Origin: Alphaproteobacteria bacterium
Lineage (GTDB): Bacteria; Pseudomonadota; Alphaproteobacteria; Ferrovibrionales; Ferrovibrionaceae
Assembly (NCBI GenBank): GCA_017307375.1
Contig: JAFKFH010000005.1
Location: 124,001 to 188,000 of the forward strand
Length of the DNA: 64,000 bases
Direction of reading: 5' to 3'
Positions within the stretch are counted from its first letter, which is position 1. Every line of letters starts with the position of its first letter. The position numbers and the translations under genes are program-made. Under the pieces are notes generated by a model. The model worked only from the letters and a program-made list of their open reading frames with translations. It had not been told where the DNA came from and ran no database searches. Of the stretch, positions 55,131-56,740 are shown in pieces.

Positions 55131-55139
55131 TGTGGATAA
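55131..55139 (-). promoter_or_regulatory. DnaA-box-like site 1 upstream of dnaB
   Basis: TGTGGATAA is the exact complement of TTATCCACA, the strongest DnaA box. It lies 135 nt before the dnaB ATG. Confidence 0.6.
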
Positions 55140-55171
55140 AATCATGCGAAGCCAGCATCGATGCGGCCCAG

Positions 55172-55180
55172 TTGTCCACA
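55172..55180 (+). promoter_or_regulatory. DnaA-box-like site 2 upstream of dnaB
   Basis: TTGTCCACA differs from the TTATCCACA consensus at one base. It faces site 1 across 32 nt. Confidence 0.5.
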
Positions 55181-55212
55181 GAACAAAAGCGGGGGACAAT
55201 GCGAATCGGAGC

Positions 55213-55241
55213 TTGTACCTGGTGGCCGCGCTGTGCATAAA
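55213..55241 (+). promoter_or_regulatory. dnaB promoter
   Basis: TTGTAC (55213-55218) and CATAAA (55236-55241) are separated by 17 nt, 32 nt before the dnaB ATG. The -10 overlaps DnaA-box-like site 3. Confidence 0.55.
55232..55240 (-). promoter_or_regulatory. DnaA-box-like site 3 overlapping the dnaB -10
   Basis: TGTGCATAA is the complement of TTATGCACA, which fits the TTATNCACA consensus. Binding here would cover the -10 element of the predicted dnaB promoter. Confidence 0.55.
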
Positions 55242-55273: not shown

Positions 55274-56740
55274 ATGGCCAGCGTCACCCCGCTGAATACC
55301 GACCCGCAGGCGCCTGTCTATCGCAACCAGCCCCACAATGTGGAGGCCGAGCAGGCGTTGCTGGGTGCAATCCTCGTGAACAACGAGGCGGCGTCGCGGG
55401 TTCAGGGGTTCCTGATTGCCGACCACTTCTTCAACCTGGCCCATCAGCGGATCTACCGCGCCGCCGCGACGCTGATCGAGCGCGGCCAGATCGCCAACCC
55501 GGTCACGCTCAAGGGCATGTTCGACCGTGACGAGGCCCTCAAGGAACTGGGCGGCGCCAGCTATCTCGCCCGCCTGGCCGGTGCCGCCATCACCATCATC
55601 AACGTCGAGGAATACGGCCGGCTGATCCACGACCTGGCCGTTCGCCGCGAACTGATCCGCGTCGGCGAGGAAATGGTGAACAACGCCTACGACGCCGCCC
55701 TCGACGTCGCCGCGGTCAAGCAGATCGAGCAGGCCGAGGCCAAGCTGTTCTCGCTGGCCGAGACCGGCCGGTCGGAAAGCGGTTTCGTCAGCTTCAAGGA
55801 TGCGATCCGCGTATCGCTCGAGATGGCCGAGGCCGCGCTGGGCACCGGCGGCGTATCGGGCGTCACCTGCGGCCTGCGCGACGTCGACCGCATGCTCGGC
55901 GGGTTCCACAATTCCGATCTTCTGATCCTCGCCGGCCGTCCGTCGATGGGCAAGACGGCGCTGGCCACGACGATGGCCTTCAATGCCGCGCGCATCTGGC
56001 TCGAGACCAATGGCGAGCGCGGTTCCGGCGTCGCCTTCTTCAGCCTGGAAATGTCGGCCGACCAGCTCGCCACCCGTATCCTGTCGATGCAGGCCGAGAT
56101 CCCGTCGGAAAAGTTCCGCAAGGGCGACATGACCGACGAGGAATTCCAGATGCGCCTGATCCCGTCGGCGCAACTGCTGGAACAGGTGCCCTTCTTCATC
56201 GACGATACCGGCGCGATCCCGATTTCGACGCTGCGCGCCCGGTCGCGCCGGCTCAAGCGCCAGCACCCCGAGATCGGGCTCATCGTCATCGACTACCTCC
56301 AGCTCGTCCGCGGCTCGTCCAGCAAGGCCAACGAGAACCGCGTGCAGGAAGTCTCCGAGGTGACGCAGGGGCTGAAGGCGCTGGCCAAGGAACTCAACGT
56401 GCCGGTCCTGGCGCTGTCGCAGCTGTCACGCCAGGTCGAGGCGCGCGACGACAAGCGGCCGCAGCTGTCCGACCTGCGCGAGTCCGGCTCGATCGAGCAG
56501 GACGCCGACGTCGTCATGTTCGTCTATCGCGAGGAATATTACGAAATGCGCAAGCAGCCGGCGATGGACACGCCGGAGCATTTCGCCTGGCAGGAGAAGA
56601 TGGAGAGCATCCGCGACCAGGCGGAACTCGTGATCGGCAAGCAGCGCCACGGCCCGATCGGCAATGTCATCATGAAATTCGAATCCCAGTTCACCAAGTT
56701 CTCGGACTACTCCGGCGATCGCCGCCCGCATGAGAGCTGA
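55274..56740 (+). CDS. dnaB: Replicative DNA helicase
   Basis: A 488-aa hexameric helicase that unwinds DNA ahead of the replisome. The N-terminal domain begins NVEAEQALLGAILVNNEA; the RecA-like domain has Walker A GRPSMGKTALA, Walker B LIVIDYLQLVRG and DLRESGSIEQDADVVMF. No intein is seen. Between its own promoter and TspO are three DnaA-box-like sites. In related genomes an alanine racemase gene usually follows; here an MlaE/MlaF pair does. Confidence 0.97.
   Translation: MASVTPLNTDPQAPVYRNQPHNVEAEQALLGAILVNNEAASRVQGFLIADHFFNLAHQRIYRAAATLIERGQIANPVTLKGMFDRDEALKELGGASYLARLAGAAITIINVEEYGRLIHDLAVRRELIRVGEEMVNNAYDAALDVAAVKQIEQAEAKLFSLAETGRSESGFVSFKDAIRVSLEMAEAALGTGGVSGVTCGLRDVDRMLGGFHNSDLLILAGRPSMGKTALATTMAFNAARIWLETNGERGSGVAFFSLEMSADQLATRILSMQAEIPSEKFRKGDMTDEEFQMRLIPSAQLLEQVPFFIDDTGAIPISTLRARSRRLKRQHPEIGLIVIDYLQLVRGSSSKANENRVQEVSEVTQGLKALAKELNVPVLALSQLSRQVEARDDKRPQLSDLRESGSIEQDADVVMFVYREEYYEMRKQPAMDTPEHFAWQEKMESIRDQAELVIGKQRHGPIGNVIMKFESQFTKFSDYSGDRRPHES

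What the first reader, a model, noticed from the sequence alone, without database searches (positions are those of the whole stretch)
55131..55241. Three DnaA-box-like sites in the dnaB promoter region
Seen: TTATCCACA (minus), TTGTCCACA (plus) and TTATGCACA (minus) within 110 bp; the third overlaps the -10 of the predicted dnaB promoter. Known: DnaA regulates replication genes by such sites. Inference: DnaA couples dnaB expression to initiation; less likely, the cluster titrates DnaA.
Basis: partly seen in the sequence, partly recalled or inferred. Interest (0 to 1): 0.6.

Follow-up and report, generated by a model that had tools for sequence, protein, structure and literature searches.

The report
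Conserved DnaA boxes upstream of dnaB
The control region in front of the gene for the replication helicase carries a conserved set of likely binding sites for the replication-starting protein DnaA, a known but little-surveyed way to tie helicase supply to the start of DNA copying.

Summary
The third site is misassigned: TTATGCACA at 55232 has no counterpart in relatives, while a degenerate box at 55191-55199 fits a conserved array, box(-) 41 box(+) 19 box(-). That array is also the best of 330 spacings in 6 of 9 sister-genus dnaB loci. In 120 dnaB loci of the same class outside the family, perfect TTATCCACA lies within 200 bp upstream in 22 of 120, against 0-3 of 118 in bins further up and 0-1 of 120 for scrambled words. 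Predicted oriC is elsewhere. The array follows dnaB, not the divergent tspO. Best reading: DnaA is a transcription factor, probably an activator, of dnaB. The kind is known: predicted DnaA boxes and DnaA-dependent dnaB in Caulobacter (PMC8203912), and DnaA binding upstream of dnaB in M. tuberculosis (PMC7738170). No binding or expression was measured here.

The parts
55131..55139 (-). DnaA box 1, TTATCCACA (perfect consensus)
   Evidence: conserved first site of the array in sister-genus loci
55172..55180 (+). DnaA box 2, TTGTCCACA, 41 bp from box 1
   Evidence: conserved second site
   Evidence: fits the conserved third place; the weakest of the three (2 mismatches in the 8-base core)
55232..55240 (-).
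55213..55241 (+). candidate weak promoter TTGTAC-17-CATAAA
   Evidence: 7 of 12 matches, 13 bp after box 3; not reported by the consensus scan
55274..56740 (+). dnaB, replicative helicase, 488 aa
   Evidence: PF03796, PF00772
54607..55089 (-). tspO, divergent neighbour, about 42 bp from box 1
   Evidence: (PF03073)

Best explanation
The stretch is the regulatory region of dnaB and carries an array of DnaA binding sites. DnaA, encoded on contig C16 about 85 kb from the predicted oriC, binds boxes 1 to 3 upstream of a weak promoter, the nearest box about 13 bp before the -35, and most likely helps RNA polymerase to start dnaB transcription, so that helicase supply follows the level or nucleotide state of DnaA. 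Shown: the sites, their excess, their conservation and spacing, and the same box-to-promoter layout at gcrA and dsbA. Inferred: that DnaA binds them, that the effect is activation, and the timing in the cell cycle. The box over the -10, found only here, may add repression when DnaA is high.
For: Array with 41 and 19 bp spacing: in the window none of 329 other spacings scores as well; the same in 6 of 9 sister-genus loci, two of them perfect. In the class, 22 of 120 loci have a perfect box within 200 bp upstream of the DnaB match, against 0, 0, 0 and 3 of 118 in bins further up, 0 of 120 in coding, and 0-1 of 120 for six scrambled words; with one mismatch 52 of 120 against 3, 4, 8, 13 of 118, 1 of 120 in coding, and 2-8 of 120 for scrambled words. 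Array kept where rplI, not tspO, lies upstream (8 of 9 sister-genus loci). The predicted oriC regions of the family use the same variants, TTATCCACC, TTATCCCCA, TTATCCACA. gcrA has a box in 13 of 19 family loci, 13-14 bp before the best -35 in 12 of those 13, and dsbA a box 13-15 bp before it in 13 of 13. Literature; in M. [quoted passage not shown]
Against: No binding or expression data for this organism. Box 3 of the window is degenerate, and three of nine sister-genus loci keep at best two of the three sites; the six loci of the five other genera of the family lack the array. 68 of 120 class loci have no box with at most one mismatch within 200 bp. The promoter is a poor match, and in the sister genus the dnaB core promoter could not be placed consistently. 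The control gene rpsF is not free of boxes: 5 of 30 loci have one with one mismatch, four of them TTTTCCACA at -130 to -132 in sister-genus genomes; 0 of 30 perfect.
Confidence: 0.7

Rival explanations
1. DnaA represses dnaB: bound over the -10 (55232) and upstream, it blocks RNA polymerase when DnaA is high.
For: TTATGCACA overlaps the candidate -10.
Against: That box was not found at this place in relatives; the conserved boxes lie upstream of the -35. In M. tuberculosis weaker binding goes with lower dnaB expression (PMC7738170).
Confidence: 0.13
2. The array is not mainly for dnaB: it titrates DnaA or changes its nucleotide state, like datA or DARS of E. coli.
For: Three boxes with rigid spacing between genes. 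In 7 of 8 sister-genus loci an IHF-like sequence with 0-2 mismatches lies between boxes 1 and 2 at the same offset; PMC5742627 puts the IHF site of datA between DnaA boxes (passages).
Against: The window itself has 5 mismatches at the IHF-like place. Box order differs from the DARS core, where box I opposes boxes II and III; here the middle box opposes the outer two. Boxes go with dnaB across the class, often singly.
Confidence: 0.1
3. The boxes serve the divergent gene tspO.
For: Box 1 lies about 42 bp before the tspO start.
Against: tspO was found only in the window among 16 family loci (about 1.5 kb upstream examined); 8 of 9 sister-genus loci have rplI there and still carry boxes.
Confidence: 0.02
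4. Chance, or sites of another protein with a similar word.
For: Nothing here shows which protein binds.
Against: Controls; the same word variants in the predicted oriC regions and at gcrA, a direct DnaA target in Caulobacter (PMC8203912, PMC3193534, passages).
Confidence: 0.05

Closest known systems
DnaA-dependent dnaB of Caulobacter crescentus (Hottes et al. 2005, not read; seen through the review PMC8203912, section 9)
   Same: Predicted DnaA boxes upstream of dnaB; dnaB in the DnaA regulon; same class, as far as the class can be inferred.
   Different: Here the evidence is sequence and conservation only; box number and spacing were not compared with Caulobacter.
DnaA site upstream of dnaB in Mycobacterium tuberculosis (PMC7738170, passages)
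   Same: DnaA bound upstream of dnaB.
   Different: Distant phylum; shown there by pull-down of genomic DNA, not tested here.
DnaA-activated gcrA promoter of Caulobacter (PMC3193534 and PMC8203912, passages)
   Same: A DnaA box upstream of the promoter; gcrA of this family has one too.
   Different: One box there by the paper; an array of three at dnaB here.
datA and DARS of E. coli (PMC5742627, passages and sections 20-21)
   Same: DnaA-box clusters with fixed spacing and opposed boxes between genes.
   Different: Orientation differs from DARS; no IHF-like site at the relevant place in the window; goes with one gene across many relatives.

Membership tests
DnaA-regulated promoter | DnaA-box words above background near a promoter | tested here: met
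DnaA-regulated promoter | boxes conserved with the gene in relatives | tested here: met
   6 of 9 sister-genus loci with the array; 52 of 120 class loci with a box of at most one mismatch
DnaA-regulated promoter | a recognisable core promoter next to the boxes | tested here: inconclusive
   none in the consensus scan; 7 of 12 matches for the candidate
DnaA-regulated promoter | DnaA binds and alters transcription | not testable with these tools
   needs footprint and reporter
oriC | many boxes in an AT-richer stretch at the locus known for oriC in the class | tested here: not met
   such a stretch lies on C16 before PPSR, not here; that PPSR marks oriC is recalled
DARS | three boxes, box I opposite to II and III | tested here: not met
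   orders compared
datA | IHF site between DnaA boxes | tested here: not met
   5 mismatches in the window; 0-2 in 7 of 8 sister-genus loci

The most novel reading that the evidence does not exclude
DnaA control of dnaB is an old circuit spread over much of the class, and in this family it is one output of a small DnaA regulon (oriC, dnaB, gcrA, dsbA-smc, perhaps uvrC). At oriC and dsbA-smc here, and at gcrA and dsbA in the sister genus, a GANTC (CcrM) site directly abuts the DnaA box, which would make a methylation-gated DnaA switch; the sister-genus dnaB array adds an IHF-like site between boxes, a datA-like complex used at a promoter.
Probability: 0.3. Interest if true: 0.6.

Novelty: new member of a known kind. 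Interest (0 to 1): 0.4.

Why it matters
It extends a link known from Caulobacter, DnaA to dnaB, to a broad sample of the class with controls, and names exact sites for a test. If true, initiator activity and helicase supply rise together. The shared box-to-promoter layout at gcrA and dsbA predicts a small DnaA regulon that one ChIP-seq experiment could confirm or refute.

Tried and rejected
oriC at dnaB: rejected. GC skew in the window was uninformative. Service of tspO: rejected. RNA hairpin from the inverted pair: considered, set aside because many class loci have a single box; not folded. DARS membership: rejected on box order.

Corrected on the way: the first look at relatives was wrong because loci of minus-strand hits are given on the + strand; redone, and counts do not use. 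The first oriC scan failed to find the start in 10 of 17 loci; redone. An earlier count said 12 of 15 dsbA loci; the recount is 13 of 15. A two-box pattern search of the family found only 2 of 18 genomes because it demanded exact words. Paper searches with no hit: DnaA, alphaproteobacteria, upstream of dnaB; DnaA, binding sites, dciA, smc; DnaA box, GANTC, gcrA promoter. The library holds open-access papers only. The window's taxon was not determined.

Rows behind the class counts: one search gave matches in 172 of 182 genomes; 120 of the 172 were read (30 loci from the call, 80 fetched already held), plus 3 genomes alone, 123 in all. Three of the window's own family (own genome included) were dropped, leaving 120. 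The 52 unread are mainly the least similar matches, one of them with stops inside, so the sample leans to closer relatives. Two loci had little upstream DNA and are missing from the distant bins (118).

Full report
What is there. The three 9-mers are in the sequence as stated. dnaB (488 aa) runs 55274-56740 on + and tspO runs away from it on -. The assembly (7.54 Mb, 41 contigs; window = C3:124001-188000) holds 37 TTWTNCACA and 21 TTRTCCACA; the same words read backwards give 40 and 31. So DnaA-like words are not enriched genome-wide; what is unusual is clustering. Of the 37, four pairs lie within 132 bp: dnaB, the predicted oriC, the dciA-dsbA region, and a place beside a resolvase gene.

oriC is elsewhere. 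The PPSR (Kinase-PPPase) and maf genes, recalled as oriC neighbours in Alphaproteobacteria, are at C16:366.7 kb. The 400 bp before PPSR have GC 0.58 (window mostly 0.64-0.73), and the 600 bp before it hold eight boxes with at most two mismatches, five with at most one. The dnaA match is about 85 kb away. In a single-contig relative (G003, 4.3 Mb) PPSR is at 1.306 Mb and dnaB at 3.015 Mb.

Conservation in the family. Nine of the ten sister-genus genomes gave a readable dnaB locus (in the tenth the match is in pieces). Boxes with at most one mismatch lie upstream in all nine (alignment). For box(-) 41 box(+) 19 box(-), scored on the 8-base core, the window has 3 mismatches in all and none of 329 other spacings does as well; the same holds for L051-L056, six of nine, two perfect. 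In L048-L050 two sites at best fit and 2 to 14 other spacings score as well. Six loci of five other genera lack the array. I noticed the spacing in three of these loci before testing it, so the shuffle result (0 of 200 in each of ten loci) overstates independence. The window site that fits the third place is 55191-55199, not 55232.

Which gene it follows. In eight of nine sister-genus loci rplI lies upstream on the dnaB strand; tspO was found only in the window.

Conservation in the class. In 120 dnaB loci outside the family, perfect TTATCCACA is within 200 bp upstream of the DnaB match in 22 of 120, and in 0, 0, 0 and 3 of 118 in the four bins further up and 0 of 120 in coding. With one mismatch: 52 of 120 against 3, 4, 8 and 13 of 118 and 1 of 120. 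Six scrambled words give 0-1 of 120 perfect and 2-8 of 120 with one mismatch. Twenty of the 120 have two or more boxes in 300 bp; the most frequent spacings are 21 bp (+-, 5 pairs), 9 bp (++, 4) and 12 bp (-+, 3). Of 27 loci from a separate scan, 16 have a box with at most one mismatch within 200 bp (these may overlap the 120). Control gene rpsF, 30 loci: 0 perfect; 5 with one mismatch, four in the sister genus (TTTTCCACA, -130 to -132) and one of the 14 loci outside the family.

How it may work. gcrA, a DnaA-activated gene in Caulobacter (passages), has a box in 13 of 19 family loci examined, the own genome included (TTATCCCCA); in 12 of these 13 it ends 13-14 bp before the best -35. The dciA-dsbA region has a perfect box in 13 of 15 family loci and 0 of 15 others, 13-15 bp before the -35 in 13 of 13. 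In the window box 3 ends 13 bp before TTGTAC-17-CATAAA, a poor promoter that the scan does not report. The -35 was chosen as the best in a short range after the box, so the gaps are descriptive. Boxes upstream of a weak promoter suggest activation; that is inference. In the sister genus the dnaB core promoter could not be placed consistently.

IHF-like site. Between boxes 1 and 2 the sister genus matches YAANNNNTTGATW with 0-2 mismatches at one offset in 7 of 8 loci (L050 was not scored); the window has 5. The consensus TAAnnnnTTGATW was read in PMC8682772 (passages); I loosened its first base.

Known or new. The review PMC8203912 (section 9) says that in C. crescentus predicted DnaA boxes lie upstream of dnaB and that dnaB is in the DnaA regulon (Hottes et al. 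2005, not read). PMC7738170 (passages) reports DnaA pull-down of DNA upstream of dnaB in M. tuberculosis. So the kind is known. I did not find the class-wide count or this family's array in the search listings, which cover only the held library and of which few papers were opened.

Noticed in passing
L035:3105-3133; own genome C1:73104-73132: Two perfect TTATCCACA between dciA (helicase loader, PF05258) and dsbA, with smc next; one overlaps the dciA stop. A perfect box is kept there in 13 of 15 family loci and 0 of 15 others.
   Followed up: partly
own genome C1:73106, C1:73126, C16:366376, C16:366497; 18 family genomes: Composite GANTCYTGTGGAT (CcrM site abutting a DnaA box): 33 copies in 14 of 18 family genomes, 0 for the word read backwards. 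Own genome: 2 at dciA-dsbA and 2 at the predicted oriC. By position 10 more lie at dsbA and 6 at gcrA of the sister genus; of the other 13 some are in coding sequence.
   Followed up: partly
L326-L344; own copy L330: gcrA promoters of the family carry a minus-strand DnaA box, 86-90 bp before the start in 12 loci and 102 in one, 13 of 19 examined.
   Followed up: partly
L077:4799-6226; own genome C31:55816: A second dnaB, 88% identical over the compared part, near an HTH repressor-like gene; no box with at most one mismatch in L077:4000-4900. The 86% identical L082 has a similar upstream stretch, by eye. Possibly a mobile copy.
   Followed up: partly
L043:3100-3108; own genome C20:38099: Perfect TTATCCACA 86 bp before uvrC.
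   Followed up: no
L039:3378-3401; own genome C9:3378-3401: Inverted pair of TTGTCCACA, 15 bp apart, before a ParA-like gene near a contig end; perhaps a plasmid replication or partition site.
   Followed up: no
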